From positions 1-42,758 of the IMG/VR virus record IMGVR_UViG_3300025141_000218: DNA of 42,758 bases; one strand, given 5' to 3'. Source of the DNA: a virus. Below the pieces are notes generated by a model, which ran no database searches, had not been told where the DNA came from, and was given only the letters and a program-made list of their open reading frames with translations. Every line of letters begins with the position of its first letter. The stretch's first letter is position 1. The position numbers and the translations under genes were made by a program. This document shows, piece by piece, positions 11,777 through 37,391 of this stretch.

Positions 11777-12928
11777 TTAGTATGTCCACAGACCCGGGTA
11801 GGTGTATCCATCTGCCATCTGATTATTGACTGCACCAAGTGCGGTCTCAGCGGCAGGTGTCGTTGCAGCACGGGCGGTAGCATCAGTCATGGTATCACCA
11901 GTGATCAACTCGAGGCGGTTAACTGCCGCGATGTTGGCGAGGCCCATTCCAATGTTTTCCCATGCCCAGAAGGAAATGCTGCGAGCTTCCTTCTTGACGT
12001 AGAACTTCACGTTATCCAGGATGTAAGAACGCCCGAAGAACGCAGGATCGGTAAAGCCATACACGAAACCGTCGTGCAACAGGTTACCCTTGAGGGTAGT
12101 CAGGATCTGGTAGCCGAGTACGGTGTTGTACTTGTAGCCCTTGATCATGACGTCCTTGGTCAGTACGTGGCCAAGGTCGGCAGCAGTGAGCTGGCCGAAG
12201 TCTGCGAAGGTATACTCAGTCATGAGGACCTTCGACATACGCAGAGCGCGACCATCGAGCGTAAACAATTTCGCCAGGGACGAAATGTCCTGCTTCTGGA
12301 TCGCATTCACAACAGCGCTGGTATCGCCAAGGGCGGAGACCATCGCCAACTCACTCTTGACCGTGGCGTCCTGGACAACGGTACCGGCGGTAACAGCTGC
12401 ACGGCCATTGTTGGTCCAGCCCGCGGGAACTGCGGGATCGTCGCCATTGGCGAGGGCCTGACGTGCTTCAATGCAGGACTCGACGTGGACGAGGAAGTAA
12501 CGGTCTTCAACTTCCTGGATGTCTTTCACAATGTTATTCTTGATGACATCGGAAATCGGGTAAGTGTAGGTGCGGAGTTCTTCGGTGTAACCTTCCCATT
12601 TCAGGGAGCTAACGGTGAAGAACGCAACAGCCATCCGACGTCCCTTGATGAGCTGAGGATCCGGCTCGCCGCGGAACGAGATCGACATTGCCCGGGAACC
12701 GGGTTCGATATCGACGATCTTGTAGACGGTGTCGTGGAAAAGGGACCGCTGACATTCAGCAACAGTCACAGGTTTAGGCGGAAGAATCTTCCGACAGAAG
12801 GACATCTCTCGCAGCTTATCACGGACGTAAGCGGAACCGGCAGCAGCCAATTTCTCTTTTTCGCCACTCGTGTCATCAGCCTTGGAGATGAACAATTCGT
12901 TTAGCACGCTCGCGGGCATGTTTTCCAT
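11777..12928 (-). CDS. Probable major capsid protein
   Basis: A 383-residue protein with the size, position and composition of an HK97-fold major capsid protein. It follows a protease, three scaffold-like genes and a decoration-like gene, and precedes the connector cassette. It has an N-terminal helical segment with an E-K-L-A element at residues 25-28, a possible propeptide cleavage point. Next come a basic stretch (K-I-L-P-P-K), a beta/E-loop-like region with R-R-M-A-V-A-F-F, a long central helix around residues 130-160, then alternating strands and helices with F-V-Y-G-F-T-D-P near residue 295. AAGGAGG lies close before the ATG, and a strong hairpin follows the gene. No other ORF here fits the role better; the 222-residue neighbour is too small and looks like a decoration protein. 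Confidence 0.65.
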   Translation of the reverse strand: MENMPASVLNELFISKADDTSGEKEKLAAAGSAYVRDKLREMSFCRKILPPKPVTVAECQRSLFHDTVYKIVDIEPGSRAMSISFRGEPDPQLIKGRRMAVAFFTVSSLKWEGYTEELRTYTYPISDVIKNNIVKDIQEVEDRYFLVHVESCIEARQALANGDDPAVPAGWTNNGRAAVTAGTVVQDATVKSELAMVSALGDTSAVVNAIQKQDISSLAKLFTLDGRALRMSKVLMTEYTFADFGQLTAADLGHVLTKDVMIKGYKYNTVLGYQILTTLKGNLLHDGFVYGFTDPAFFGRSYILDNVKFYVKKEARSISFWAWENIGMGLANIAAVNRLELITGDTMTDATARAATTPAAETALGAVNNQMADGYTYPGLWTY

Positions 12929-15485: not shown

Positions 15486-15513
15486 TGTATACGCATTCCT
15501 ACACGAATGGCAA
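15486..15513 (-). promoter_or_regulatory. Putative sigma70-type promoter before scaffold gene
   Basis: On the minus strand, TTGCCA (15513-15508) is followed after 16 bases by TATACA (15491-15486); with 18-base spacing the -10 would be TACACT. The -35 lies in the very end of the protease gene. It would drive the scaffold-decoration-capsid cassette separately. Spacing is suboptimal and the call is tentative. Confidence 0.3.
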
Positions 15514-16980
15514 GCGGTTGAAAGCCTTTTTTATTGCTTCTTGATTTAGACCAGCAGCGAGCAGACCCGAGGAAGTAAGGACCGGGTGCTTCGCTATGAA
15601 GCGCTGAAGCAGGTTAGGTTTCATGCCTGCCCGCTCACGTTTCCGCAAGTGAGCGCTGTACGCGTAGACTAGCGGGATAAGTAGCGCCCAAGCAGGAACC
15701 GACTTCAAAGTGCCGGCTAACCCGGCTACTGTAGCCGTCTTCTCCAGACCACCGTTCGAAACTACATCGTCCAAACCGGCGAGTGCCTGGTTACGGTAAT
15801 CAATGTAAAGCTTACCTAGAAATTCTTCGTGCTCCCCACCAAGTGGGGTTTCAACGTCGATTGGCTGGGCTGTGGCCAATTTCTCTAAGCGCTTGTAACT
15901 GTGCGGGCAGAACATCGACCTGGTGCCGGAGTCGATATCCATGGGCAACGGGGCCCCGGCGAAGCTCATATTTATCGGGGAGGTACCAGCACCCCGACTC
16001 TGCGGGCGGAAGACAATATTACGTTTGAATAAATGCGAAGCTGTAGGAGCACCGACGGACTTCACAAGTACGATGCGCTGGAATTCCGAAGGCTTCAGGA
16101 TAATACCTTTACCCAGGAGTGCTCCCAGAGCAGCGCCAAGCGGGCGCTCCGACAAGCGCTGGAGTGCCTTCTCAGGGAGGGACTCTTCTGCTTTAAACAA
16201 GGGATCCAGGTGGTTAGCCATTCCTGGGACATCCTTGAGGATAGTAGCACTCTTGCCCTTGGTCGCTGTTTTCACTGAAGCTACTTTCTCAAGTGCGAAG
16301 CCTGTACGATCCGCCCCTACCAATACAAAAGAAAGATCGAAGAATCGGGGGTTGGGGTTGAAGAGGAATACCTTGCGGCCGTCTGGATACGTCTTCCCAA
16401 GTTCGTTCTTCCCGTGAAAACAGTAATCGGAGCGAGTGCGGGACCTATGTCCGCAGATGCTACATACGTCGTAGGCAACTCTGCATCCCATGGATACAGG
16501 TACGTTTTCTCCTGCTTCGAGGCGAGCCACCAGCGATCCGTGTCCTTCATCGCGACCTTTCTTCATGTTGATCTCGATGACCAACTCTACGCGGTGCATT
16601 TTCCGGTTATAGACCGAGAGCACCACTTTCCCGAAACTCTTCTCGATATCTTTGTTGACGTGGTGGCGGTAAGTGCCGGCATTGTAGAAGCTCTTGTACC
16701 CGTACATTGGGGCCTGCGGGTGCAACAGCTGCTTCTCTTCGAAATAGTCATTGTTGATATTTGCACCGTAGTACTCCCCGGCGCCCAGAGCGGAGATCAA
16801 GATGTAGATGAACCCAGGCTTCTTCTTGACCCCTTTGATGTACTTATTGACTTCCGGGTCGTAGTCACGCTTAGTCTTCGCCGTCTTCTCGAACCCCGAA
16901 GCATTGGGATTGTAGGTCTCTACAAAGATCTGCCCGGTTTCGGGATCGATGCCCTGGAAGTCTAGTCGTTTTTCAATCAT
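15499..16980 (-). CDS. S78-like prohead maturation protease with zinc-knuckle and C-terminal extension
   Basis: A 493-residue protein. Residues 50-170 match the herpesvirus-assemblin/HK97 type protease layout: a strand pair, a histidine at 106 or 107 (R-H-H-V-N), a G-K-V-V-L-S-V-Y-N strand, a long E-L-V-I-E-I strand, then G-E-N-V-P-V-S-M-G with candidate nucleophile Ser163. A Cys cluster follows directly (C173, C176, C187, H189), and an F-F-D-L-S-F-V-L-V-G-A-D segment closes the domain. Four signature sites lie in the protein itself: E-K-T-A at 31-34, E-K-V-A at 231-234, E-K-L-A at 366-369 and E-K-T-A at 413-416. These would separate a propeptide, the protease core and C-terminal pieces by self-cleavage. 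The C-terminus has a hydrophobic stretch near 430-442 and a K-H-P-V-L-T-S motif at 464-470. Protease assignment is fairly secure; cleavage specificity is inferred. Confidence 0.68.
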   Translation of the reverse strand: MIEKRLDFQGIDPETGQIFVETYNPNASGFEKTAKTKRDYDPEVNKYIKGVKKKPGFIYILISALGAGEYYGANINNDYFEEKQLLHPQAPMYGYKSFYNAGTYRHHVNKDIEKSFGKVVLSVYNRKMHRVELVIEINMKKGRDEGHGSLVARLEAGENVPVSMGCRVAYDVCSICGHRSRTRSDYCFHGKNELGKTYPDGRKVFLFNPNPRFFDLSFVLVGADRTGFALEKVASVKTATKGKSATILKDVPGMANHLDPLFKAEESLPEKALQRLSERPLGAALGALLGKGIILKPSEFQRIVLVKSVGAPTASHLFKRNIVFRPQSRGAGTSPINMSFAGAPLPMDIDSGTRSMFCPHSYKRLEKLATAQPIDVETPLGGEHEEFLGKLYIDYRNQALAGLDDVVSNGGLEKTATVAGLAGTLKSVPAWALLIPLVYAYSAHLRKRERAGMKPNLLQRFIAKHPVLTSSGLLAAGLNQEAIKKAFNRLPFV

Positions 16981-19418: not shown

Positions 19419-21062
19419 TCAATCGCGTTGCATAAAAGCAGCCCCGGCGCTCATTAGGTCCGGCCTCGGGTGGCTAAGCATGCTAGCGAGGAGACAGTAA
19501 ACGGAGGAGTGGAACGCGTCATCGGTGCCATCGACCAATTTGTCGTACACCATTGTGTGCCTATCCTCGCGGTACTCGGAGTAGATGCTCAGGAAGTCCT
19601 CGGCAAAGGGTTCGAACTCCTCCCATCGAGGGAAGCGGATGTGCCCATTCTTTACGGCATTGAAGAACCGACTCATGATTTCTGTACGATTAACCATGAA
19701 ACGGGATAACGCGGGTTCCCACTTAACAACCGTCTTGGAATTGACATACTGGTACTTCGCTATCTTGCGCGGTCCGTATCTCGTAGTCAGTGCGGCGTTT
19801 TGGACAAACCCGCCGCCATAGTCAGTCCCCACCACATCTACATTGCGGGTATTTCCGTAGATCGAATCAATCTCGGCTATCTGGCGGTCCGGCTCTGAGA
19901 GCTCGCCCATAAACTTCTTGTAGTTGATGAAGGTGAACTTCCCGGTGAGGTACGCACCAGTCGACAGCACAGTGTAGCTGTTTTCCGCCGAACCCCAGTC
20001 GATGCCGAACCACTTGGGCTCCCGCGACTGCGCCCAAAAAGATGGGCCATAGGGATATTGGTCGCTGTACATGGAGACCCGTGGGTCGCAAGCCTGCCGC
20101 AGCTCCTCCTTCGTGATGGGGGTTGCGCCTACGTCGTGCGGAATGCCCAACACTTCGTTAAGGAATTGTGCCCGGGGGTACCGCTTCCGCTTATCTAACA
20201 GCTCGGGCCACGATACTCGTGGGGAAATGATCTGCGGGATGCGGAAACCCTCGAAGGGAATCTCTACCCCTGGGTCCGGATTCATAGAGACCCACTGTGA
20301 GGATTTATGCATTGGGAATATTTCTTTCCCGCATCTTGCGCATACCAGGCAGTCGGCCCCAATGTTTTCCTCACCAGGTAGATTCCAGTAACGGTAGTCA
20401 CCTCCCCCGCAACCATCGCAGGGGATCATCCACTCATTCTGCGTTGAGAACTTATTGTACGTGCGGGAGAGGGTATTCGACTCTGTTAGTGGGGTGCCGG
20501 CGTAATGGAATTGTTTGTACTCCGAAGAGAAGGTGCACTCCTCGATGACCGGCAGTAGGGTGGCGAGCACATTCTGCAGTTCGTCCACAAAGAGGAGGTC
20601 AGCCATAATCCCGCGGATAGCATCGGCCGTCAGATAGGCATACCCGAGGCGTATCTCGGAACCCGAGACGAACTCCTTGTACATAGCGTTATCCTTGGCA
20701 CCTTTGTTCAATTGCAAGTTACCAAGAACCTCCGACCAAAGGAGGGGTTGCTTGAGCCTATCTCGGCTAAACGTCTGGGCTTGGCCTTGCCGCGGAGCAA
20801 CATAGAGGATCTTGACGAAGCGATGCAAGGAGGCCGCCGAGAGCATCTTATTGCCCTGTGAAGTTGATTTTTCAACTTGTCTGCCGCACATAAGGACGGT
20901 CTTTTGCGCTGGGGTGTCGTACACCCGACGAAGGTACCTTCGGCCCTCGAAGGAGAATGGCTGCAGCTCACCCCGAATGGGTAACCGGAAAACTGACTCT
21001 ACGAAGTTGGATAAAGTTAGGCTAGCTTTAGATTGCGTCCCGGGTCCTGCGACCGGCTGCAT
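19419..21062 (-). CDS. terL: Terminase large subunit
   Basis: A 547-residue DNA-packaging motor and headful/end nuclease. The ATPase has a Walker A of G-R-Q-V-E-K-S-T (60-67), a Walker B L-L-F-V-D-E (156-161) and an A-G-T-P coupling segment (188-191). A cysteine cluster (C215, C218, C238, C241, C244) is inserted between ATPase and nuclease, as in lambda gpA-like or other zinc-bearing terminases. The RNase-H-like nuclease shows F-G-I-D-W-G-S with D355, T-D-Y-G-G-G with D414, and D-G-T-D-D-A-F-H-S near the end. The Glu in place of the usual Gly before Lys in Walker A is a mild deviation that I believe occurs in other phage terminases. There is no EKxA signature outside the Walker A E-K-S. It is encoded just upstream of the head-assembly promoter. 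Confidence 0.9.
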   Translation of the reverse strand: MQPVAGPGTQSKASLTLSNFVESVFRLPIRGELQPFSFEGRRYLRRVYDTPAQKTVLMCGRQVEKSTSQGNKMLSAASLHRFVKILYVAPRQGQAQTFSRDRLKQPLLWSEVLGNLQLNKGAKDNAMYKEFVSGSEIRLGYAYLTADAIRGIMADLLFVDELQNVLATLLPVIEECTFSSEYKQFHYAGTPLTESNTLSRTYNKFSTQNEWMIPCDGCGGGDYRYWNLPGEENIGADCLVCARCGKEIFPMHKSSQWVSMNPDPGVEIPFEGFRIPQIISPRVSWPELLDKRKRYPRAQFLNEVLGIPHDVGATPITKEELRQACDPRVSMYSDQYPYGPSFWAQSREPKWFGIDWGSAENSYTVLSTGAYLTGKFTFINYKKFMGELSEPDRQIAEIDSIYGNTRNVDVVGTDYGGGFVQNAALTTRYGPRKIAKYQYVNSKTVVKWEPALSRFMVNRTEIMSRFFNAVKNGHIRFPRWEEFEPFAEDFLSIYSEYREDRHTMVYDKLVDGTDDAFHSSVYCLLASMLSHPRPDLMSAGAAFMQRD

Positions 21063-22189: not shown

Positions 22190-23845
22190 CTAGTGTTTAG
22201 GGTACTCATAAACCCACTCACCATTCCTGGGGTTTCGCCACTTACGTAAATACTTGTGCGTGCGTATCCCTTTCGGGGTCTTCTGCTTCAGCACAGTACG
22301 CATGCTCTCGTTCAACCGGTGCTTCCGGCGAGCTACATTGTACACCCACTCATCGACTGTGGCACCCGGCTTACGATTGAAGAACCGGCCCTTGGGGTAC
22401 ACACTCTCGTACCGCTTAACCACCACCTTGCGGTTTTCGGGGGCACGATGCTTCTGACCACCCAACCTGCGAACCCGGGCCTCTGCCTGGTGTACCCGCT
22501 CAGGGTTCCAATGGCCGTCCATAGAGAAGAAGCCGGTAGCATTCTTCAAATCCAGACCTTCGGCCCCGGCCCCCGAGATAAGCACTACTTTCTTCTTACC
22601 AGCCTTGAAGTCTGCAATATCCTGGTCTCGGCTGGCGTGCGTAATCTTCTTTCCGGCTATGGTCCTACCAGTACCGGCAAAGATGCCGAAGGGAACACCT
22701 CTTGCCTTCAAGCCCGCAGCTGCTACGTCGAGGCCACCCTGGATTAGATTACTGTAGACTACTGCTTTGCCGTCTGAAGTTGTAGCTAGATGCTTTTGCA
22801 CGTCACCCAGGAGTCGTTGGACCTTCGGGGTGCGCGCGGCGGCCTCTGCTTTGGGCACCTTAGACGAGGATGCAGAAGAGATATCGTTAAGCGCGCGACG
22901 CGCGTGGATGATCTTACCGAATACGTGCTGCAGCTGCTGGGGAGAAAGGTTGGTCTCACCTGTAGCAATCATCTTCTTGATGGGCCCCAACTTATCCATG
23001 ATGTAGTCGTACTGGAGCTTCTGCTCGGCGGACATCGGAACCTTTACGTTCTCCACTTCCTTCCGCGGCATACTCTTTCCAAGAGAGTCGCTGGTCTGGA
23101 CGTCCACCACGGGCTTTACGTAATGGGCTACCTCTCCCGGATTGACGATTGCTTTGATCTTCTTAGCTCCGCCCCAGAACCCCTTCTGCTTACCAACTGT
23201 TTTCAGGTAGCGCTGCTTGAACAGGGACTTATTCATGAACTGGCCGCCAGTGGCGATGTTCACGAGGGTCGCGATCTCCGCGGGGTTGTTGTTTACCGGG
23301 CTTGCTGTAAGGCCAATGAAGTTCTTAGCGTACTCCCGAGCTTGCAAGGCAGCTTTGTGGGTAGTTGACCGCTCGTTGCGGATCTTATGGAACTCATCGA
23401 AAATCAAAGTATCCGAGCCGCTGCGTTGTAACAGCCCTACCGGATCCTTACGGAACATCTCATAGGACACCACGGTGTAGTCCGAAGTTGGCGTGGCGTC
23501 GGATATGTACCGGATGTGATCGTTGGGGTCCTTTTGCGCGCTACTCTTAGAGCCTACTAGCTGGTAGGTGGAGTTCGTAAACTTCTTGATTCCCTCTTCG
23601 AGGAAGTTAGTCTTCAACCCTGCAGGTACAACAACGAGGGCACGGTTAGCTTTCCCCGCAGCTTTGGCTTTCTCGAAGGCGAAAATAGCAGTGGCGGTCT
23701 TCCCCGTCCCAGTTGAATGCGCAAGAATTACCTGGCCCCGCTCGAAAAACTTATCTACGGCAGCCTCCTGATGGGGGTAGGGGCTAAACCCCTCCTTCAC
23801 TCCACCAGTCTTCTCGAGACCCAGGTATTGTGTGAAGCTACTCAT
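22190..23845 (-). CDS. SNF2-type helicase/ATPase with head-type leader
   Basis: A 551-residue superfamily 2 ATPase. Motifs in order: Q-like P-Y-P-H-Q (22-26), motif I S-T-G-T-G-K-T (44-50), motif II D-E-F-H (150-153), motif III L-T-A-S-P (179-183), motif V G-A-E-G-L-D-L and motif VI Q-A-E-A-R-V-R-R-L-G in the C-terminal RecA domain. These are SNF2/DEAD-like remodeller or translocase features. The N-terminus (residues 1-14) ends L-E-K-T-G, a variant of the head signature. The C-terminus carries a T-H-K-Y-L-R-K-W motif and a W-V-Y-E-Y-P end, similar to short tails seen in some phage virion proteins. The gene lies among structural genes. A DNA translocase carried in the particle or acting at packaging is an inference; it overlaps the preceding gene by eight bases. 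Confidence 0.75.
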   Translation of the reverse strand: MSSFTQYLGLEKTGGVKEGFSPYPHQEAAVDKFFERGQVILAHSTGTGKTATAIFAFEKAKAAGKANRALVVVPAGLKTNFLEEGIKKFTNSTYQLVGSKSSAQKDPNDHIRYISDATPTSDYTVVSYEMFRKDPVGLLQRSGSDTLIFDEFHKIRNERSTTHKAALQAREYAKNFIGLTASPVNNNPAEIATLVNIATGGQFMNKSLFKQRYLKTVGKQKGFWGGAKKIKAIVNPGEVAHYVKPVVDVQTSDSLGKSMPRKEVENVKVPMSAEQKLQYDYIMDKLGPIKKMIATGETNLSPQQLQHVFGKIIHARRALNDISSASSSKVPKAEAAARTPKVQRLLGDVQKHLATTSDGKAVVYSNLIQGGLDVAAAGLKARGVPFGIFAGTGRTIAGKKITHASRDQDIADFKAGKKKVVLISGAGAEGLDLKNATGFFSMDGHWNPERVHQAEARVRRLGGQKHRAPENRKVVVKRYESVYPKGRFFNRKPGATVDEWVYNVARRKHRLNESMRTVLKQKTPKGIRTHKYLRKWRNPRNGEWVYEYPKH

Positions 23846-27509: not shown

Positions 27510-28721
27510 CTATGAAATTTTGGTGCTCCCAGCGAGCATGTTATTCAAGTTCGTTATCCATTCCGGTGTTGGGACTCCAGTAAAGTTCTTAACCCCAACT
27601 ACGTGTTCATGTGCCGCCAAAAGCTTAATCAACTCAAAACCCAACACAGCGGGCTGCACGGGCCCTCTGCCCAAGTTTATAGTCTGGTAGTCTATGGTGC
27701 AACTCGCCGTTTGGGAGTTAGACGACATAACGATACCCGCGAGTGCCTTCACCACCAACTCCTGCACTACAATATCGAGCCCGTTATCCGCCGCTCCCGT
27801 GATCCGACCAGTACCACCGAATTTGAGGTCGAAACCGCCTGCAGCGTAGATGTGCGCGGACCCCACCTCCCAATGCACGTCCCCCGTAATCTTCGAAAAG
27901 ACGTTACCCTCAGTGTCGATCTGGAACACGTACGTACACCCTGTATTCTCGGGATCCACGCAAATGGATACCAAAGTAGTCTCTTGCGGGTCATGCGGGT
28001 AAGCTCCGCTGAAGAGATGTGACTGCGTGCGAGTGGCTCCAAAGAGCTCATCCTGCTTGGGGGAGAACTGTTCATCACCAGCTCTGCCCGCCCTAACATT
28101 GATCGTCACGAAACTATCTTCTACATCCTTCTTCATCCCCCAATACATCTGGGCGGAAGTCATCTCTTCCCCGGTCTTAATCGCGCCGTGCTTCCAGTAG
28201 AGATTGCCCAACAAAGACTTGGCTTCGTAATTCTGGAAGAAGTGACGGATGAAGTTATCTATTGGGATATAGACGGTTTGCGCCAAAGGAGAGCTCCCGA
28301 TCTGTAGGGTCCCGCCCTTACGGAGGAGCACCGTCGCACCCCGGGAATTGTAGAGTGCGATGTCCCCAGGAGCTAGGCCGAGCCGGCCACCCATGAAGTC
28401 ATCCTCAGGTTCCTCGGCGTCATCAGCGGCAAAGGCGCCATGCCGTGGAGCACTAACCCACCCCACAACCACCGGATCAGACCCGTCGGAGAGAGATAGG
28501 ATTAAGCACTTAGCACCTACTTCGGGGACGAAATCGATATGGGTACCAGTTGACACGTTGGAGTACATCGTTCCGTAGGCGATACTGCTGTGGATGTCAG
28601 ACTCCCCAGAGAGGTCCACTTCGACATCTATTGTTCGAGTCTCCGGGTAGACTGCGACAACAGTACCAGTCGCGACCGCGGCTGCTGATGAAGTACCACT
28701 TCCTTGAGGCCCACTAACCAT
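27510..28721 (-). CDS. Baseplate spike-like protein (gpV/gp5-type)
   Basis: A 403-residue protein. After a Ser/Ala-rich N-terminus, residues 15-95 have the strand order of the OB-fold of gpV/gp5N spike proteins: G-T-V-V-A-V-Y-P-E-T-R-T-I-D-V-E-V, a loop, K-C-L-I-L-S-L, then D-P-V-V-V-G-W-V-S. A G-D-I-A-L-Y-N-S-R-G-A strand pair and a middle domain follow. From about 285 to 355 the sequence becomes strand-turn repeats (G-N-V-F-S-K-I-T-G-D-V-H-W, G-G-F-D-L-K-F-G-G), typical of a spike shaft, and the end is a helical H-E-H-V-V-G segment. This would be the cell-puncturing device at the baseplate centre. No lysozyme or peptidase motif was identified. No EKxA element. Confidence 0.55.
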   Translation of the reverse strand: MVSGPQGSGTSSAAAVATGTVVAVYPETRTIDVEVDLSGESDIHSSIAYGTMYSNVSTGTHIDFVPEVGAKCLILSLSDGSDPVVVGWVSAPRHGAFAADDAEEPEDDFMGGRLGLAPGDIALYNSRGATVLLRKGGTLQIGSSPLAQTVYIPIDNFIRHFFQNYEAKSLLGNLYWKHGAIKTGEEMTSAQMYWGMKKDVEDSFVTINVRAGRAGDEQFSPKQDELFGATRTQSHLFSGAYPHDPQETTLVSICVDPENTGCTYVFQIDTEGNVFSKITGDVHWEVGSAHIYAAGGFDLKFGGTGRITGAADNGLDIVVQELVVKALAGIVMSSNSQTASCTIDYQTINLGRGPVQPAVLGFELIKLLAAHEHVVGVKNFTGVPTPEWITNLNNMLAGSTKIS

Positions 28722-28742: not shown

Positions 28743-31700
28743 TTAGTAAGTAGTTCCTTCCTTCGCCCCAAACTCCGAGCCGTACACAATCCCAGGAATA
28801 GGGTGGTCCCCGTGTATATGGGAGATGGCCTGCTCCGCCCCCGCCTGCTTTAGCACGTCACGTAGATGCTTGTAGTTCAGCTTGGTGACCCAATCATCGT
28901 ACAGGTGGAAGGGTAGCACATTCGTGCCACGAAGCACCGGCTTGAATTGCACCTGACTCTCTTTCTTATTCTCTGAGTTCCAGGCTTGAATAGCTCGGGT
29001 GGGTACAATATCCCCCGGTAGGTACGTCGGGTGCTTACCCGCGTCCCCTACCTCAGCGACATCCGTCAACGCTCGGACAATAACCTCCAGGTGCCGCCGC
29101 TTGGTGCCTTCTGGGTCGTATAGCTTCGCCAACTCCCCTACCAGGTAATTCTGGACTGTGGAAATGTTGGTCTGCTCTAACAGCTCACGGGGGTTAACCG
29201 GCCCACTACTCAGGGTGTCTCCCTTAGAGACCTTCGATCCCCGGACAACTGTTAGCCTCCTACTGGCCGGGACGTGGTGCACCTTATGGTTGATACTGAC
29301 ATCCCACCCGCCGACCTGACTCTTGTTTACGGAAGATACCGGTCCTGAGGCAGTAGCCAAAATTGCCGAACCCTTCAACTTCTGGGGCATTTGGAGTACC
29401 TGCCGCAAACGCTCGATACCGTCCACCAGGCCTGCACCACCCGCGGAAGCAGCACCGCCCATATGGAAGACTCGCATCGCGAGCTGAGTAGCCGGCTCCC
29501 CAATGGACTGCGAAGCCAGCACTCCGATGTTGGTGCCCATGGCAACCTGGCCACCGGCTGGGGCGGTACCGTAACATTTCTGGCAGATGCCTTTCTTTAA
29601 CTGGCACTTCAAAGGGCTGCGGACCAGGATTTTGGAGATCTTAGCCTGCCGAATCTTAGCTACGACATCGGGAGTGATGGTACTTCCCGCGGAAAGAACC
29701 TCACCCTTCACCTTAATAGCTTGCGCAAGAGTTCTATCCAGCGCCCCCAAATCGCTTGTCGGTGTGAGCACACCCTTAGAGGTCTTACAGTCGTTGCCGC
29801 CGATCACGAAGCCCATGGTAGTCTTAACCACCTGCTTAGTGATCGCCCCCGGGTCCTGCACCTCTTGTGTCTTGGAGATGATACCCCGCCGGATACCACC
29901 GGAAGAGACCCAGAAGTCATGCAGGGAAAGACCTGACCCATACGCCCCCGAGATCGCCGCGGGGATGGGGTTCCCCTTTGCGTCGCTAACCATCATGCGG
30001 GCCAGCACTATCTGCTTAATCTGCTCCCAATTAGGTTTAACACCCGCCTCGGACATGATCCACAGGGGATTGTCGTCTTTACGGAGTTGGGCCAAAGCGT
30101 CCTTCTGCATGGCCGTCGATGCCTTGTGGTACAGGTCTACAATCTTTGCGTCCCGAGCGGCCTTTGTAAGACCCCGCTGTAGCTTGATCGCCGCAACCTT
30201 AGGCTCCACCTGCTTGAGCACCTTATCCCGAATGCCATCAAGGGTCTTAAACGCCTTGAGGCTGAAAGAGAAACCAGCCTTGTGCGCGTGGTTGAACCCC
30301 ACGTCCTTCAGGACTTGCGCGAGGAGGGGGTACTCCTTCGGGCTGTTCTTCCCAACGTCAAGGAACATCTCCTTCAGGGACTTCTTATTCAGAACCCAGT
30401 CGTCCCCACTGCCAACCCTGCTACGCATGTTCTTCGGTAGCGCCTTGCGTAGGAACTCTCTACCAGCAGTCGTTTTCTTTCCGGCTACTTGCGTTGACAT
30501 GTCCCAGGGGATGGTCTTCTTCTCGGCAGCCGCTATCAATTCCTCGGGCGTAGCGAACTTCTTGGACGACTTCCCACGCACTCGACTCAGTAAGTACAGA
30601 CCAACCAGACTTTCCTTCACAGGTAAGAACATAGGGCGACCCGAAGCTGGGCTAATCAAGTGCCGGCTGGGGAGCATATCGTAAGCTTCTTTAACAGAAG
30701 CTTGCGACACCGGGACAAACAAGGAGACCTGGTCCCCATCGAAGTCCGCGTTGTACCCGCTACACACCAGGGGATGTATATGGATTTCCTTGTCTCCGAG
30801 GATCCGAGCGTTAAAGGCCATAATGCCGTACTTATGGAGAACCGGGTCACGCTTCATCAGTACTGGTCTTTCTTTTAGAACCTGCCCGAGGGCAATGCGG
30901 GCCTCCGGCTTCCCATCCCGAATAGCATCTCTGGCCTGCAGGGGCTTCAACCCACCACGCACCAGGTTCTGCACAACAAACGGCCGGAACAATTCCATAG
31001 CGGTACCGGCAGGGATACCTATCTCATCTAGCTGGAGGCTCTGATCGGGAACGATAACACCGCGGGCTGACATGTCTTGCTTCCGCTTAACCAACTGCTC
31101 CATGAAGTAACCGGTCTTCGGTGACTTCCCGGCGATGATGTCGAGGATACCCTTGGGCAGATCCAGCCGCTCACGGTCAGGACCGATGAGCCCAGCTAGA
31201 GCTGTAATGCCGTTATAGACCTCGGCGCGTAGCTTGACCAACTCCTCCTCCGGTGTCTCCGGAGGCATTTCCTTTAACCGCGAGTTGCTAAGACTCAACT
31301 CTTTGTATAGCTGGTTCAAGTCACCCCGATTCAGGTTACCGTCGTCCAGCACAGTGATGGGCCGGAACTGGGGTGGGAGTACCAACACGGACTTTTGCAT
31401 GTAGACGTCCGCTTTGTTACCTGATCTCTTCAAAGCCCGGAGGTAACGGACTTTCTTGTTGAGGCTGTTGCGTGTCGACTCTTTGGCCGAAGACAATGCT
31501 TTTTCTGCTGCGGCCAACTCCTTGTCGATGTCGAGCTCCCGAAGCGCCCTTCCCACTGTTGCCGCTGGTCCAGTCCGCGTGGCCTCGTCGGCGGGAACGA
31601 TCTCGCCTTTCGAGTTCATGCCCTGCTCCCCCGAGATGAGCGCCATAAGCGTATCGTGCTTCATCCCGAGTAGCGCAGCAATAGGCCTCTCGAACATGGG

Positions 31701-34700
31701 ATTCGGGAACGACTCGGAAAGAGAGAAGTGGGAGAAGTGCCGGCCACCAACGCCACCTGTAATCTTCTCATCGAATAGGCCACCGGGTTCTGGGCGTAAA
31801 TCCTTAGCCCGTAGAATCTTACCGGGATCCTTGAGTTCGCCATTTGAGGTGCCTTTGACCTGCTTCTCCGTGAAGGGTAACACGGTTAGGACATCACCTT
31901 CGCGCTCCACGTCCAACCCAAGCACATTAAGGTACGCCAGGAACTTACTGAAGGTAAAAGGAACCTTAGGGCGCGGCAGAGGATGGTTGAGTTGCACAGC
32001 AGTCCATATGTCGTCCTGGGACGCATCTGACTTAAAGGTCTGTAATTCCTGTATGTTATGCTTAGCTCCGTGGGCCAACATAGCAAAGAGGCCGAGCTCC
32101 CCGATACGTTGTGCTCCGTGCTTCCCGCCACCACGAGGCTCCATGTTTACCGTGTACTCGTACCCCGGCCCCCAGGATCTCGCGGCTGCTTTCTTTTCCG
32201 CTTGGTGGTTCAACTTAAGGATGTATTGCTTACCTACCAACACCTTCCCGAGAGACTTGCCGTTCTCGTCAAAGACCTCCTCTTCCTCGGAAAGCCCACG
32301 CTCCTTAAGCATCCGGGCGACTATCTCGCGGTAGTCTCGCTTATACTCGTAAGGTTCAATCCAGACCTTCTTCTTACTTTCACCTTTTGGGCCTGTCTTC
32401 AGGGTACGCCAATGGCCCTTGACTTTAATGATGCGCACATCAGGATCGGCCTGGAAGTTTCGGACGGCGATAGGTGACTTCTCGTAGTCAGCAACCAAAG
32501 ACAACGAAGTCTCCAGCACCTGACCAGCGTTCATACGGCCGCCAACGCCCAGGGGATTCATAACCAGGTCTACAGAGTTTCCTTCCCCATCGCGAGGCAT
32601 CTCATCATCCGGCAGCACCATAGTGATGACGCCTTTATTCCCATGCCGGCCCGATAACTTGTCCCCAGGCTGGGCAGCAAAGTCGGCCCGCACATGGACT
32701 TCAATAGTCTTACCGCGGCGCACGACGTCTACCACCTCACCGCGTACGGACTTGTCCCAGACCACAGAGCGATCTGAGTACTCCCTAACCAGGCTGCGGT
32801 GAATACCACGAAGCATTGCTTTCTCGGGGGACATGGTCCCCTTCTTAGCTGCGGCGATGAGCGAGTCGCCGGGTTCCACAGTTTGGCCGATCTTAATGAC
32901 ACCGTCGTCGTCCAGCTTAGCTGTATTCTCCTTGGTAAGACCTTCGGGGAAGAGGGTGCTGTACTTCTTCTTATTCAGGACGTAATCGCGATCCATGTAC
33001 AACGAAGGCTTGAGCATGTGCTGGGAGGTCAACTTCTTAGAGGCCGTCTCCGATATCAGTAAGCCATCCTCGAACACCAACCCTTTATAGGGGACATACG
33101 CGACACGTAGGTTAGTGCCGATCGCCAGTACTCCGTCTTTGGTATAATTGGTATCGGCGATTATCTGCCCCTTCTTGACTGTATCCCCCACCGCTACAGA
33201 GGGGGTAGAGGTCACGTACGCCTGCAGCTCGTTAAGCGGGAAGTTGTCGTAGAGCTGGATCGTCTTCTTCTCTTTCCCGGTGTCTACGGTGATGCCGTCT
33301 TTAGTTACTCGGGTAACCTTACCATTCACAGGGCTCGCGTGTGCAGCAAAGGAGGCCCAAACCCTTTCGTGCGTCATAGAGGGATCGTCCATGGACCGGC
33401 TATGTGTTTGTACAAGCGGAGCTTCCCGGCCTTTCAACGGAAGCGCCTGCTCCATGTGCCGAACCGCCATCTCTACACGAGTACCGTCGTCATTCTGCAG
33501 GAAGGGGACGAGGTTAGTCATAGGGGAGAACATGGCTGTAGACGAAGGGAGGACGTAGTCAACCTTATCCGCGGTAACCACTGCCTTCAAGTCAGTCGCT
33601 GTCTGCGCGGTAACGTGCTTCGTTACTGGAGACCACTTGCCCTTCTTCTGGATGAATTGATCCGGGAAGGATACAGTAGCCTGTGAGAGCTGGAGCGGTG
33701 TCACCAACTCCATCTTCCCCTTCTTCATGTTATACGCTGGGATGTACACCGCCCCATCTTTCCGGCGAGCATCCGTTGTGAGCTTCAAGGAGATTCCTGC
33801 TCGGTCTCCTTCTGGAGTATGTACCGGGTCCAGGACGCCGAGCTGTGTGGGGTCAGCCGCTTTCGCCGAGTCCGTCACACCAAAGGAAGAACCGATGGCC
33901 CCAACGTCGCCCCCCAGCAATGTTGTCCCCAAATACTTAGAGACCATTGATACCGGGTTAGTCTGGGGAGTCTGGTTGGCTACAGCCGACTCCCGGAAGA
34001 AGGACAGCAATGGAGCAGCGAAAATATCAGAAGAGAATATTTCGCGGACAGTATCCCGCCGATCCAGGTTGTTACGTATCTTCCGCATTATCCGGGTTCG
34101 GGAACGGTCCAACCGGTCAGGGAGTAGATCTTCTACGCCGAGCAAATCTTTGAAGGGCAGGGCATCTCGGTTGTCTGTATCGCGCTCCCCGCGGTGTATC
34201 TGCAATAGGTTTGTTGACGCTGTAAGCAGCGCTTCGGAGTTCACTGTGTCGTGCGGCTTGCCGAGGGTGAGGATAGTGGAGTCTGGTCGGAGCTCTGTGC
34301 CCGCAAAGCGCTCCCGTATAGCGGAATCCATTTGCTCAGGAGTCTCAGGTATGGGGTCCTTAAGCGAGGTGAGTAACTTTTTGAGTGCCGAAGTTTTCTC
34401 TTTGGGTGTGGTCTTCACCGCATTGAGGATATCCTTACCCCATGCTTTCTCCATGGCGCCGTCCGATACACCCAACGCGTTAAGCACCGGATACAGCGGG
34501 ACCCGGGCAGAACCATACTTGAAGTGGAAGTTCTTTTTCTTCGTATCTAGCGAGAGGCGGAAGCCACGACGGTTGAACCCACTTTTGAGGTTGAACATAA
34601 CCTCGGGTTCTCCAGTGGCCGCGATACGCGAGTAGACCCCAGATTTCAAACGCCACACGTGGTCCGTCTGGTATTCCTTCCCGTCGAGGATAAAGCTATA

Positions 34701-34997
34701 CCGCCGGGTTAAATTGGGCAAGCCTACGATCTTGGTCTTCTGCGAGCGGCTAAGAGTCTTCCCGGTCTTGTTGTCTACCAGAGAGAAATCACCAAAGATA
34801 CCAACAGACCAGGTTCTCCCGTTCCGCTTAGCAGTATCCTGGCTCTTGATATCATCGACGGACTTGGGATCCGCTAGGACAACACTGTTGAGCTTTAGGG
34901 TATGCTTGGAGCCCACTACCGGAAAGAAACTTTCTACCTTGTCGATTACGCTTTTCTGGATGTCTTCAGTAAGAGTCTGCGGATTGAGGATTAGCAT
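28743..34997 (-). CDS. Single-chain beta-beta' DNA-directed RNA polymerase
   Basis: A 2084-residue protein containing both catalytic subunits of a multisubunit RNA polymerase. The beta part (about 1-1080) shows a P-M-T-N-L-V-P-F-L-Q-N-D-D-G-T-R fork-type motif, G-R-H-G-N-K-G (783-789), N-P-L-G-V-G-G-R-M-N and a C-terminal G-A-Q-R-I-G-E-L-G. The beta' part shows a short clamp start, V-L-P-P-Q-F-R-P, the R-K-Q-D-M-S-A-R-G-V zip/lid region, N-A-D-F-D-G-D (1416-1422) with the three Mg-binding Asp, a bridge/trigger region, and A-S-Q-S-I-G-E-P. The four cysteines equivalent to beta' zinc module 2 are kept (N-D-C-K-T; C-Q-L-K-K-G-I-C-Q-K-C). Module 1 seems absent. The gene has its own sigma70-type promoter and AAGGAG SD. 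No alpha, omega or sigma partner is in the window. It may transcribe phage genes in the cell or be packaged; it has no EKxA leader. Confidence 0.93.
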   Translation of the reverse strand: MLILNPQTLTEDIQKSVIDKVESFFPVVGSKHTLKLNSVVLADPKSVDDIKSQDTAKRNGRTWSVGIFGDFSLVDNKTGKTLSRSQKTKIVGLPNLTRRYSFILDGKEYQTDHVWRLKSGVYSRIAATGEPEVMFNLKSGFNRRGFRLSLDTKKKNFHFKYGSARVPLYPVLNALGVSDGAMEKAWGKDILNAVKTTPKEKTSALKKLLTSLKDPIPETPEQMDSAIRERFAGTELRPDSTILTLGKPHDTVNSEALLTASTNLLQIHRGERDTDNRDALPFKDLLGVEDLLPDRLDRSRTRIMRKIRNNLDRRDTVREIFSSDIFAAPLLSFFRESAVANQTPQTNPVSMVSKYLGTTLLGGDVGAIGSSFGVTDSAKAADPTQLGVLDPVHTPEGDRAGISLKLTTDARRKDGAVYIPAYNMKKGKMELVTPLQLSQATVSFPDQFIQKKGKWSPVTKHVTAQTATDLKAVVTADKVDYVLPSSTAMFSPMTNLVPFLQNDDGTRVEMAVRHMEQALPLKGREAPLVQTHSRSMDDPSMTHERVWASFAAHASPVNGKVTRVTKDGITVDTGKEKKTIQLYDNFPLNELQAYVTSTPSVAVGDTVKKGQIIADTNYTKDGVLAIGTNLRVAYVPYKGLVFEDGLLISETASKKLTSQHMLKPSLYMDRDYVLNKKKYSTLFPEGLTKENTAKLDDDGVIKIGQTVEPGDSLIAAAKKGTMSPEKAMLRGIHRSLVREYSDRSVVWDKSVRGEVVDVVRRGKTIEVHVRADFAAQPGDKLSGRHGNKGVITMVLPDDEMPRDGEGNSVDLVMNPLGVGGRMNAGQVLETSLSLVADYEKSPIAVRNFQADPDVRIIKVKGHWRTLKTGPKGESKKKVWIEPYEYKRDYREIVARMLKERGLSEEEEVFDENGKSLGKVLVGKQYILKLNHQAEKKAAARSWGPGYEYTVNMEPRGGGKHGAQRIGELGLFAMLAHGAKHNIQELQTFKSDASQDDIWTAVQLNHPLPRPKVPFTFSKFLAYLNVLGLDVEREGDVLTVLPFTEKQVKGTSNGELKDPGKILRAKDLRPEPGGLFDEKITGGVGGRHFSHFSLSESFPNPMFERPIAALLGMKHDTLMALISGEQGMNSKGEIVPADEATRTGPAATVGRALRELDIDKELAAAEKALSSAKESTRNSLNKKVRYLRALKRSGNKADVYMQKSVLVLPPQFRPITVLDDGNLNRGDLNQLYKELSLSNSRLKEMPPETPEEELVKLRAEVYNGITALAGLIGPDRERLDLPKGILDIIAGKSPKTGYFMEQLVKRKQDMSARGVIVPDQSLQLDEIGIPAGTAMELFRPFVVQNLVRGGLKPLQARDAIRDGKPEARIALGQVLKERPVLMKRDPVLHKYGIMAFNARILGDKEIHIHPLVCSGYNADFDGDQVSLFVPVSQASVKEAYDMLPSRHLISPASGRPMFLPVKESLVGLYLLSRVRGKSSKKFATPEELIAAAEKKTIPWDMSTQVAGKKTTAGREFLRKALPKNMRSRVGSGDDWVLNKKSLKEMFLDVGKNSPKEYPLLAQVLKDVGFNHAHKAGFSFSLKAFKTLDGIRDKVLKQVEPKVAAIKLQRGLTKAARDAKIVDLYHKASTAMQKDALAQLRKDDNPLWIMSEAGVKPNWEQIKQIVLARMMVSDAKGNPIPAAISGAYGSGLSLHDFWVSSGGIRRGIISKTQEVQDPGAITKQVVKTTMGFVIGGNDCKTSKGVLTPTSDLGALDRTLAQAIKVKGEVLSAGSTITPDVVAKIRQAKISKILVRSPLKCQLKKGICQKCYGTAPAGGQVAMGTNIGVLASQSIGEPATQLAMRVFHMGGAASAGGAGLVDGIERLRQVLQMPQKLKGSAILATASGPVSSVNKSQVGGWDVSINHKVHHVPASRRLTVVRGSKVSKGDTLSSGPVNPRELLEQTNISTVQNYLVGELAKLYDPEGTKRRHLEVIVRALTDVAEVGDAGKHPTYLPGDIVPTRAIQAWNSENKKESQVQFKPVLRGTNVLPFHLYDDWVTKLNYKHLRDVLKQAGAEQAISHIHGDHPIPGIVYGSEFGAKEGTTY

Positions 34998-35032
34998 GGG
35001 CGCTCACTCCTTGGGGTGGCACTTTCGGGTCC

Positions 35033-35062: not shown

Positions 35063-35142
35063 CCTATTTACCATAACGGGTATAAGGGAAGTACACAGAG
35101 CACTAGCTACTTTCTACCAGATCGAACCCAAGGAGGGGAGAA

Positions 35143-35154
35143 ATGAACAGATGA
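35143..35154 (+). other. Three-codon leader ORF coupled to small acidic gene
   Basis: AGGAGG at 35131-35136 is ideally spaced from an ATG at 35143 that encodes Met-Asn-Arg then TGA. This stop overlaps the ATG at 35151 (ATGA). The SD thus best serves the mini-ORF, and the acidic gene would be reached by termination-reinitiation. The same SD could also serve 35151 directly with longer spacing. Confidence 0.35.
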
Positions 35155-35270
35155 CCTGTGACTACGACCCGTGGGATGATGACGATGACACATCCCTCGA
35201 CCAATTCTCGGATGGTCTCGCTGAAGACCTAGATGATGACGATGACGGCTTCGACCAGGAAGACGACTAG
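35151..35270 (+). CDS. Tiny, extremely acidic protein
   Basis: A 39-residue ORF that encodes mostly Asp/Glu with two D-D-D-D-D runs. The DNA segment GATGATGACGATGAC is repeated exactly at 35175-35189 and 35232-35246, 19 codons apart. There are two aromatic positions (Tyr, Trp) near the N-terminus and two Phe later, and no basic residue. A clear SD lies upstream and an AT-rich stretch with TATAAG is at 35081-35086. The gene is divergent from the RNA polymerase gene. Acidic mini-proteins in phages can mimic DNA or bind basic surfaces of host enzymes; no such activity can be shown here. Small size keeps the confidence moderate. Confidence 0.5.
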   Translation: MTCDYDPWDDDDDTSLDQFSDGLAEDLDDDDDGFDQEDD

Positions 35271-35465: not shown

Positions 35466-37391
35466 CTACTTACCTGGGGCGAATTTATTTACCTGCAACC
35501 GATCAAGCTCATCCAGGATCATGGGATAGAGCCCGGGCATCTTATCTCGCAGACGTATTAACGCTTTTGGACGCTCGAAGGCGGAGAGACCAAATAAGCT
35601 CCGCGCCGCTTGAGTCGCAAGCAACTGTTGCTCGGGACCGGAAGGAGGTGCGGGCGGTTGCTGCGTCTGTAGACGAGGCGGCATAGCCATCTCTTCTGGA
35701 GCGCCTACCCCTGAAGCTTGCATCTCCTGCGGAGTCATCCCCTCAGGTCCAGGGGGTTGGCCCCCTTGCTCAGGAGGTGGCTGGCCCGGTTGCCCGGGTT
35801 GACCAGGTTGGCCAGGTTGCGGCGGTGGTTGAGGCGCATTCTCTTGCATCACCTTTTGCTGCTCAGCCTGGTACTTCGCGGAAATCACGCCGGCCTCGCC
35901 GTTGATCTCAGCCCCATCCTCAGCGAGCTTCTCCTGCACCTTACGTTGCTGCTCAAGCCCATCGAAGATCTTCTCTTGTTCATCGTCCCAATTAAAGTCC
36001 CGGCTCTTCATCAAAGTCTCGGGGCTAAGGAACTTACGGTCCACCAACTGTAGGTCGTAAGCTGCCTTCTGCAGATCATCCGCCATACGGAAGGGCTTCT
36101 GCTTAATTTCGCAGATAGGGAGCCCGAAAGCATTTGAGATATCCCGAACGATGAACTTGACGAGGTGCTGAATATCCTCCCGCATACGCAGGAAGGTATT
36201 CTCTAAGGTACGCATGGATACGCTAGATCCCGACCACTTCAGACCACCAAATACGAATTCGGAGGGGACGCCCAGGCCCGCCAGGATCTGCTCCTGCAGA
36301 ACTTTGATTTCGTTGTGGAGCAGCAACATCTTGCCCTGACCACCGACTACCTGGTGGCCCACGGGATACGGCATCACAGGCATGTAATTGGAGTCCTTGC
36401 GCCACATGGTAATCTCGGACTTTACATGGTCCTGCCAGTCCAGGAGATTATACGTAGTGTAAGGGTCGGCCTTTGGGTCAGCTGCCTGCGGGAAGAAGAT
36501 ACGCATGGGGACGATATGTTCTAGGGCTATCGCTTCCTGCGCCTTCAATAAGATCCGGTAGAAGAACGCTGTCTTCATCACCGGGGTGATCAGAGGAAGG
36601 CCCCAACCAGCATCGTGCCGCGAGATGGAAGTACGCTTCAAGTGGAAGATGGTGCCCGTCTTGAAGACCAGCCGTTTGCCGCGGGAGACCGCATTGATGT
36701 AAGCCTGCGGAATCGTGCGGAGCGTATCTTTCCGCCCAGTAGTAATGGCGTTCGCGATACTCGGGGGAATGGTGTACGAGTAGATCGTTCGCCCGGTAGC
36801 CGGGTTATGCTCAATGTCCATGTAATTTGGATTGACCCGGATCAACCGCAGATCCTTGATCGACTTAATGTACTGGTCCTTTACTTTGGCGTAACCCATG
36901 TGCCCGCACTTCGGGCATGTGAACATAAATTGGTACGCCGTCCAGGTGTAGTCTGTAGACTCGACTGGGGACAACGCTTTGCAGTCACCACATTCGAGCA
37001 TCTTTCGCAAGGGATGGTGGACGTAGACGAAAGCATTCCCGTATGTGTGGTAGTCAAGAAGTACCTCGACCAGAGCGGCTCGGATCTGGAATACATCCTC
37101 GAAGATGTACTTGTACGTTTTGTTTAACCACTCGTTTTTATCTAGGAAAGATAGGTCAGTAATTGGGTAAGCCGAGATCTTCGAGATGGCCGCGTGGATC
37201 AACGGGTCCATCACGGAAAAGTACTCACACCAATTGAACTGTGACTTAACCGACTTCGGCAAGTACAGGTTTGACACATCCGCGAACACATTGGCGTACG
37301 GAGCGTAGTCTGTGCTCCCTGCGCGTGAAGCGTATCCACCGAAGCGATTCCCCGACCCTGGCGCTATATCATATGGGTTGCTACCAAACAT
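35466..37391 (-). CDS. Portal protein with zinc-knuckle and Pro-Gly-Gln tail
   Basis: A 641-residue ring protein through which DNA is packaged and which joins head and neck. Portal features: an N-terminal domain with N-W-C-E-Y-F-S-V-M-D-P-L-I-H-A-A-I-S-K-I, a V-L-L-D-Y-H-T-Y-G-N-A-F-V-Y core near 109-123, S-R-H-D-A-G-W-G-L-P-L and a long helix, then G-G-L-K-W-S-G-S-S-V-S-M-R-T-L-E near 390. Inserted after the core is a C-x2-C-x21-C-x2-C set at 134, 137, 159 and 162, an unusual zinc-ribbon. The C-terminal 130 residues are Gln/Pro-rich with P-G-Q-P-G-Q repeats and a Q-E-K-L-A element near the start of that tail, a possible processing site. A promoter is not visible directly upstream. The portal call is strong. 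Confidence 0.8.
   Translation of the reverse strand: MFGSNPYDIAPGSGNRFGGYASRAGSTDYAPYANVFADVSNLYLPKSVKSQFNWCEYFSVMDPLIHAAISKISAYPITDLSFLDKNEWLNKTYKYIFEDVFQIRAALVEVLLDYHTYGNAFVYVHHPLRKMLECGDCKALSPVESTDYTWTAYQFMFTCPKCGHMGYAKVKDQYIKSIKDLRLIRVNPNYMDIEHNPATGRTIYSYTIPPSIANAITTGRKDTLRTIPQAYINAVSRGKRLVFKTGTIFHLKRTSISRHDAGWGLPLITPVMKTAFFYRILLKAQEAIALEHIVPMRIFFPQAADPKADPYTTYNLLDWQDHVKSEITMWRKDSNYMPVMPYPVGHQVVGGQGKMLLLHNEIKVLQEQILAGLGVPSEFVFGGLKWSGSSVSMRTLENTFLRMREDIQHLVKFIVRDISNAFGLPICEIKQKPFRMADDLQKAAYDLQLVDRKFLSPETLMKSRDFNWDDEQEKIFDGLEQQRKVQEKLAEDGAEINGEAGVISAKYQAEQQKVMQENAPQPPPQPGQPGQPGQPGQPPPEQGGQPPGPEGMTPQEMQASGVGAPEEMAMPPRLQTQQPPAPPSGPEQQLLATQAARSLFGLSAFERPKALIRLRDKMPGLYPMILDELDRLQVNKFAPGK

What the first reader, a model, noticed from the sequence alone, without database searches (positions are those of the whole stretch)
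28743..34997. A phage encodes a complete beta-beta' RNA polymerase on one chain
One ORF of 2084 residues carries beta motifs (G-R-H-G-N-K-G, N-P-L-G-V, the fork-like P-F-L-Q-N-D-D) followed without break by beta' motifs (N-A-D-F-D-G-D, bridge/trigger region, A-S-Q-S-I-G-E-P). Known phage multisubunit enzymes (phiKZ- and AR9-type) are split over several genes and strongly diverged, and YonO- or crAss-type enzymes are minimal. This one is close in sequence to cellular polymerases but fused. It lies next to the portal and baseplate spike genes. It suggests a host-derived, streamlined polymerase, with promoter recognition left to an unknown factor or to a domain of the fusion.
Basis: partly seen in the sequence, partly recalled or inferred. 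Interest (0 to 1): 0.92.

Follow-up and report, generated by a model that had tools for sequence, protein, structure and literature searches.

The report
One-chain cellular-type RNA polymerase in phages
This phage carries the two big halves of the RNA-copying enzyme that all cells use, joined into one 2084-residue protein; the joined form turns out to be widespread in a little-studied group of large phages, a relative carries it inside the virus particle, and it probably starts transcription as soon as the phage DNA enters the cell.

Summary
Confirmed: one intact ORF (28743-34997, minus strand, 2084 aa) encodes a complete beta plus beta' with all catalytic residues. It is not a curiosity of one genome. 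A relative (77% identical, 182.7-kb contig) has the same single ORF. Among 119 RNAP-complete phage loci (window and two isolates included) the beta/beta' boundary is never broken: 82 are one-chain, 26 split later inside beta' (as in Salmonella phage Arash), 11 split twice inside beta'. Trees of both halves agree: one phage clade apart from Bacteria, with the splits derived. So this is an old phage lineage (very probably the published 'mReC' phages), not a recent host capture; identity to bacterial RNAP is only 27-29%. The main text of the mReC paper does not mention this fusion. In Arash the homologous pieces are among the most abundant virion proteins, with a helicase and a sigma factor (published mass spectrometry). 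Relatives lack alpha; many encode sigma factors. Most likely: an alpha-free, single-chain virion RNAP steered by a phage sigma. A promoter-like motif, GGTATAAG, sits upstream of non-structural genes in many relatives. Open: activity, packaging in this phage, which RNAP reads the motif.

The parts
28743..34997 (-). single-chain RNA polymerase, beta fused to beta', 2084 aa
31875..34997 (-). beta part (residues 1-1041)
28743..31874 (-). beta' part (residues 1042-2084)
   Evidence: structure model m7a07fe6d163c, pLDDT 86.6, TM 0.84 to bacterial beta'
31818..31889 (-). junction, residues 1037-1060; motif P-[LFM]-T-[DE] followed by S-x-G-E, recognisable across the family, including the split forms
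32631..32651 (-). GRHGNKG, beta active-site motif (with Lys780 just before it and Lys788)
30732..30752 (-). NADFDGD, catalytic aspartates of beta'
29574..29789 (-). four-cysteine zinc site (C1737, C1798, C1805, C1808)
29493..29513 (-). SQSIGEP, start of the trigger-loop region
31194..31322 (-). helical hairpin (residues 1226-1268) in the place of the beta' clamp helices that bind sigma region 2 in bacteria
   Evidence: helices in the model, alignment; sigma-binding role inferred from bacterial RNAP
35007..35012 (-). AAGGAG ribosome-binding site of the polymerase gene
35466..37391 (-). portal protein (homologue of Arash gp204, 31% identity, E 8e-79)
27510..28721 (-). possible baseplate spike/OB-domain protein
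   Evidence: sub-threshold Phage_base_V, E 0.0085
22190..23845 (-). SNF2/RapA-superfamily helicase, homologue of Arash virion helicase gp217 (27.5%, E 2e-39)
35079..35086 (+). GGTATAAG, the only copy in the window of the promoter-like motif of these phages; it faces away from the polymerase gene
35151..35270 (+). small Asp-rich ORF (39 aa) downstream of that motif
19419..21062 (-). terminase large subunit
11777..12928 (-). major head protein

Best explanation
The ORF is the whole catalytic core of a cellular-type (two-barrel, beta-beta') RNA polymerase as one polypeptide. It belongs to an old phage RNAP clade in which beta and beta' became fused, most simply once; later some branches cut beta' again into two or three genes. 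Proposed mode of action: the chain is made late with the portal and head proteins, packaged in the virion together with an SNF2-type helicase and a phage sigma, and ejected with the DNA. Being one chain, it refolds or assembles without alpha and without having to find a partner subunit. Phage sigma on the clamp helices directs it to phage promoters (candidate: GGTATAAG in front of non-structural genes). Shown: fusion, catalytic residues, predicted fold, clade, synteny with portal and helicase, no detectable alpha and frequent sigma in relatives, virion location of the Arash homologues (published). Inferred: packaging in this phage, activity, sigma partnership, promoter assignment.
For: Intact ORF and motifs. 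Same fusion in a 77% relative. Census: 82 one-chain, 26 beta-beta'N | beta'C, 11 three-piece whose first ORF still carries the first ~100 residues of beta'; no break at the subunit boundary, against 77 of 78 scorable bacterial loci broken there. Congruent trees of the two halves. Confident models: beta' half TM 0.84 to bacterial beta'; core spanning both barrels and the joint pLDDT 87.5, its beta part matches bacterial beta. Arash virion proteomics: gp206 is the most detected protein (3516 spectra); gp216, helicase gp217 and sigma gp10 also present (PMC10585845); gp204, gp206/gp216 and gp217 all have homologues in this window. No alpha in 25 large relatives, controls positive. Sigma regions in the closest long relative and in most of the first set. 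Motif GGTATAAG 22-42 copies on one strand in many relatives against 0-4 for the reversed control, mostly 22-35 nt upstream of start codons in Arash.
Against: No experiment on this protein. Arash is only 32% identical and has the RNAP in two pieces; high spectral counts could reflect carry-over, as its authors say. Sigma homologues were detected by Pfam in only 7 of 14 one-chain relatives at E<=0.001 and are poorly conserved (24-31% local identity to the Arash ones). GGTATAAG is absent from several deep one-chain branches, and host RNAP could read it. The window holds only part of the genome, so its own sigma is not seen.
Confidence: 0.7

Rival explanations
1. The one-chain RNAP is not a virion enzyme but a non-virion (middle/late) polymerase made after infection, early genes being read by host RNAP.
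For: The gene lies in the late structural block; GGTATAAG contains a TATAAG -10-like core that host sigma70 might read; virion counts in Arash could be carry-over.
Against: Arash gp206 has the highest spectral count of all 116 virion proteins, with gp216, helicase and sigma also found; expression with the portal and head genes fits packaging.
Confidence: 0.2
2. The gene was captured recently from a host and fused in this phage.
For: It aligns over most of its length with bacterial beta and beta', and beta-beta' fusions exist in some bacteria (NCBIfam best match is a fused beta/beta' model, far below its cut-off).
Against: 27-29% identity to bacteria, flat distribution over bacterial groups, deep phage clade in both halves with 100 SH-aLRT, same joint motif in the whole family.
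Confidence: 0.03
3. The chain is cleaved after translation into pieces, so that the mature enzyme is multisubunit like its split relatives.
For: Relatives are split at two sites inside beta'; large phages often process virion proteins with a prohead protease, and a head-maturation-protease-like ORF is at 15499-16980.
Against: The natural splits are never at the beta/beta' joint; the joint is short, conserved and under strong selection. Cleavage inside beta' is not excluded.
Confidence: 0.12

Closest known systems
mReC phages (multi-subunit RNAP-encoding Caudovirales; Weinheimer & Aylward 2020, PMC7481178)
   Same: phage contigs with cellular-alignable beta and beta' in a clade apart from cells; NADxDGD motif; RNAP among structural genes
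   Different: the main text describes beta and beta' subunits and does not mention their fusion; here beta and beta' are one chain and the fusion is family-wide. The Pfam families of their MCP/TerL (PF07068, PF03237) were not matched by this window
Salmonella phage Arash gp206/gp216 (PMC10585845) and Vibrio phages D69, D148, D181
   Same: homologous RNAP (28-32%), portal and, for Arash, helicase; virion-located in Arash
   Different: two pieces: Arash gp206, annotated 'subunit beta', is really beta plus the N-terminal half of beta'; gp216 is the rest of beta'
phiKZ/AR9 virion and non-virion RNAPs
   Same: phage two-barrel RNAPs; one is packaged
   Different: at least four or five separate core polypeptides, highly diverged; two enzymes per phage (PMC7598289)
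crAss-like phage phi14:2 gp66, P23-45 gp64/gp96, YonO
   Same: single-polypeptide two-barrel RNAPs
   Different: little or no sequence similarity to cellular beta/beta' outside the catalytic motif, different architecture (PMC10770324, PMC7481178)
fused RpoBC of Helicobacter and Wolbachia (own knowledge; NCBIfam PRK09603 and PRK14844)
   Same: beta-beta' on one chain
   Different: cellular, about 2840-2890 aa (NCBIfam model lengths), part of an alpha-containing enzyme; independent event

Membership tests
mReC phage RNAP | phage ORFs of at least 800 aa matching beta and beta' models, with NADxDGD | tested here: met
   2084 aa; TIGR02013 rpoB 328 bits and TIGR02386 rpoC 527 bits (NCBIfam instead of COG models; below NCBI's equivalog cut-offs), NADFDGD at 1416
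mReC phage RNAP | RNAP clade separate from cellular RNAP | tested here: met
   both half-trees, 100 SH-aLRT against Bacteria; Archaea and eukaryotes not included
mReC phage RNAP | MCP of PF07068 and TerL of PF03237 where detected | tested here: not met
   MCP no Pfam match, TerL matches PF05876 GpA_ATPase; in the paper only 8 MCP and 17 TerL of 97 contigs were so assigned, so this is typical rather than defining
mReC phage RNAP | contig is in the published set of 97 | not testable with these tools
   supplementary lists could not be opened
bacterial RNAP core | separate rpoB and rpoC plus alpha | tested here: not met
   one chain; no PF01193 in 25 large relatives
phiKZ-type split phage RNAP | beta and beta' each split over several genes | tested here: not met
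   one ORF
crAss/YonO-type single-chain RNAP | no recognisable similarity to cellular beta/beta' profiles | tested here: not met
   PF00562 E 1e-49, PF00623 E 3e-29
virion RNAP | present in mature particles | not testable with these tools
   shown for Arash homologues only (PMC10585845)

The most novel reading that the evidence does not exclude
A large phage clade runs on an alpha-free, single-chain, cellular-type RNA polymerase that is packaged with its own sigma and an SNF2 helicase and reads a phage-specific promoter (GGTATAAG). It would be the minimal natural holoenzyme of the bacterial type (one core chain plus sigma), with the beta-beta' fusion ancestral in the clade and the splits derived.
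Probability: 0.45. Interest if true: 0.8.

Novelty: new variant of a known kind. Interest (0 to 1): 0.62.

Why it matters
A natural one-chain version of the bacterial core enzyme would show that alpha and separate subunits are dispensable, would give a single-gene sigma-dependent polymerase for biochemistry and synthetic biology, and would help explain how a large enzyme can be threaded through a phage tail and work on arrival. It also corrects annotations ('subunit beta' in Arash) and offers a clean marker, the fused joint, for a deep phage lineage.

Tried and rejected
(1) First thought that CTTATACC, conserved upstream of the polymerase in many relatives, was its own promoter; the annotated Arash genome showed that the motif reads GGTATAAG towards genes on the opposite strand, so this was dropped. 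(2) A TTGACG-18-TATCAT sigma70-like match upstream of the ORF: the scan as a whole finds no more such sites than chance (8 found, 8.5 expected), and the conserved half of the site is the upstream part of the divergent motif. (3) Recent host capture: rejected by trees and the genome scan. (4) A longer pattern, GGTATAAGN5TNT, was too strict across genomes, and AA-N15-GGTATAAG recovers only part of the sites. (5) The single-query viral scan found only 2 loci; alignment queries were needed. (6) The late-promoter-like CTAAAATA seen in Arash is absent from the window.

Full report
Observation. The window's minus strand carries one uninterrupted ORF from 34997 to 28743, 2084 codons, with an AAGGAG ribosome-binding site. 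Pfam places Rpb2 domains 3, 6 and 7 (residues 379-1000) before Rpb1 domains 1, 2, 3 and 5 (residues 1167-1892). NCBIfam's best match is a fused beta/beta' model (PRK09603), though far below its cut-off, with rpoC next and rpoB among the top matches. All residues expected at the active site are present, and the only five cysteines are C1412 plus the four of the second beta' zinc site. The N-terminal zinc-binding domain of bacterial beta' is missing.

It is not a chance or assembly fusion. A 182,719-bp viral contig (L005) carries the same fusion as one 2094-aa ORF, 77% identical, and the genes around it are collinear with almost all of the window. Comparing the two polymerase genes, synonymous differences are saturated while dN is 0.175, and 0.08 across the joint.

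Family census. Alignment-based scans of IMG/VR gave 63 and 80 loci. With profile searches of every ORF, RNAP-complete loci (the window and two isolates included) fall into 82 with one chain, 26 with beta-beta'N plus a separate beta'C, and 11 with three pieces. Two further loci with an apparent break inside beta are the same contig (L004, L166), a near-copy of L005. In the three-piece phages the first ORF still runs through the beta/beta' boundary and about 100 residues into beta'. No family member breaks at the boundary; 77 of the 78 bacterial loci that could be scored do. The joint itself...P[LFM]T[DE]... followed by SxGE, is recognisable throughout. Many loci are redundant or partial, and the scans favour relatives of the window, so the proportions are not population frequencies.

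Trees. Trees of the beta and beta' halves (IQ-TREE, LG+C20, quick search) agree: Bacteria and phages are separated with full support and long stems; window, L005 and L167 group with full support; the split forms make one well-supported group, and the four states need three changes, the minimum. With unsplit bacterial beta' as outgroup, the simplest account is one ancestral beta-beta' fusion in the phage lineage and later cuts inside beta'. Archaeal and eukaryotic RNAPs were not included. The nearest bacterial genomes kept by the scan are all at 26-32% identity without a preferred group.

Structure. A model of residues 1000-2084 (pLDDT 86.6, pTM 0.80) matches complete bacterial beta' chains (TM 0.84). 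A model of residues 420-1600, spanning both barrels and the joint (pLDDT 87.5, pTM 0.77), matches bacterial beta over its beta part. Among the best sequence matches to solved structures all are bacterial subunits, and in BFVD the best two matches are unnamed viral proteins, followed by giant-virus subunits.

How it probably works. The best physiological evidence comes from Salmonella phage Arash. Its gp206 (annotated 'subunit beta', actually beta plus the N-terminal half of beta') is the most detected protein of the virion, with gp216 (rest of beta'), helicase gp217 and sigma gp10 also detected (PMC10585845). This window has homologues of the Arash portal, RNAP and helicase. Alpha was not found in 25 large relatives while 13 of 14 control genomes rang. 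Sigma region 2 was found in 9 of 12 relatives of the first set and sigma region 4 in 7 of 14 of the second, among them the closest long relative. I therefore propose an alpha-free, single-chain virion RNAP used with a phage sigma; packaging and activity in this phage are inference. A review of jumbo-phage RNAPs notes that packaged RNAP subunits may have to pass the tail unfolded and find each other in the cell (PMC7598289); a single chain would ease this.

Promoter lead. GGTATAAG is the most enriched intergenic 8-mer of the L005 phage, 27 copies on one strand and 2 on the other. In Arash it is 30 to 1, and mostly 22-35 nt before a start codon with a ribosome-binding site. Whole-record counts are 22-42 on one strand in most split-form relatives, about 8-13 on the commoner strand in the window's wider clade and two further one-chain branches, and near zero in several others, against 0-4 for the reversed pattern. 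It faces genes on the strand opposite the polymerase and structural module; in the window the single copy (35079, plus strand) precedes a tiny acidic ORF and points away from the polymerase. In Arash a second motif, CTAAAATA, precedes several genes on the structural strand. Which polymerase reads them is unknown.

Relation to known work. Weinheimer & Aylward (PMC7481178) described phages with a deep-branching beta/beta' RNAP. Their main text uses 'fused' only for crAssphage, and I could not open their supplements. Chaban et al. (PMC10770324) mention 'derivatives with fused DPBB domains' in the cellular clade without details in the text. The clade is thus known; its consistent one-chain organisation, the derived splits, the inteins and the promoter-like motif were not found described in the papers I could read.

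Noticed in passing
L010, L202, L184, L228, L012, L015, L016, L053, L054, L178, L182, L197, L211, L218, L222: Intein-like inserts of about 320-540 aa at catalytic motifs of the polymerase (near GRHGNKG, NADFDGD, the trigger-loop region, and other beta sites); several carry LAGLIDADG or intein splicing domains. L010 has three in one 3259-aa chain.
   Followed up: partly
L062:2791-3231: A GNAT acetyltransferase-like domain is inserted inside the beta part of the polymerase.
   Followed up: no
window 35079-35086 and relatives: GGTATAAG promoter-like motif shared by two deep clades of these phages, strongly strand-biased.
   Followed up: partly
Arash (L256-L259), upstream of plus-strand genes: CTAAAATA, resembling T4-type late promoters, about 27-39 nt before start codons; its 7-mer CTAAAAT is 54-fold enriched there. 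Arash also has two annotated sigma-like genes.
   Followed up: no
window 35151-35270 (+): Tiny Asp-rich ORF (39 aa), divergent to the polymerase, preceded by a good ribosome-binding site; possible DNA mimic or regulator.
   Followed up: no
window 41254-41988 (+) and 39921-41282 (+): Uracil-DNA glycosylase-superfamily gene next to a second helicase; Arash also has an annotated uracil DNA glycosylase.
   Followed up: no
L004:12080-12118: Near-copy of the L005 phage in which the polymerase ORF is interrupted inside beta; natural break or assembly error not resolved.
   Followed up: no
window 2432-6745 (-): 1437-aa protein with a tail-sheath/TssC-like C-terminus and a very long N-terminal extension.
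   Followed up: no
phage GenBank records such as OR844998 and AFYI01000006: Several records in the phage collection contain what look like ordinary bacterial rpoB/rpoC, i.e. probably host sequence.
   Followed up: no
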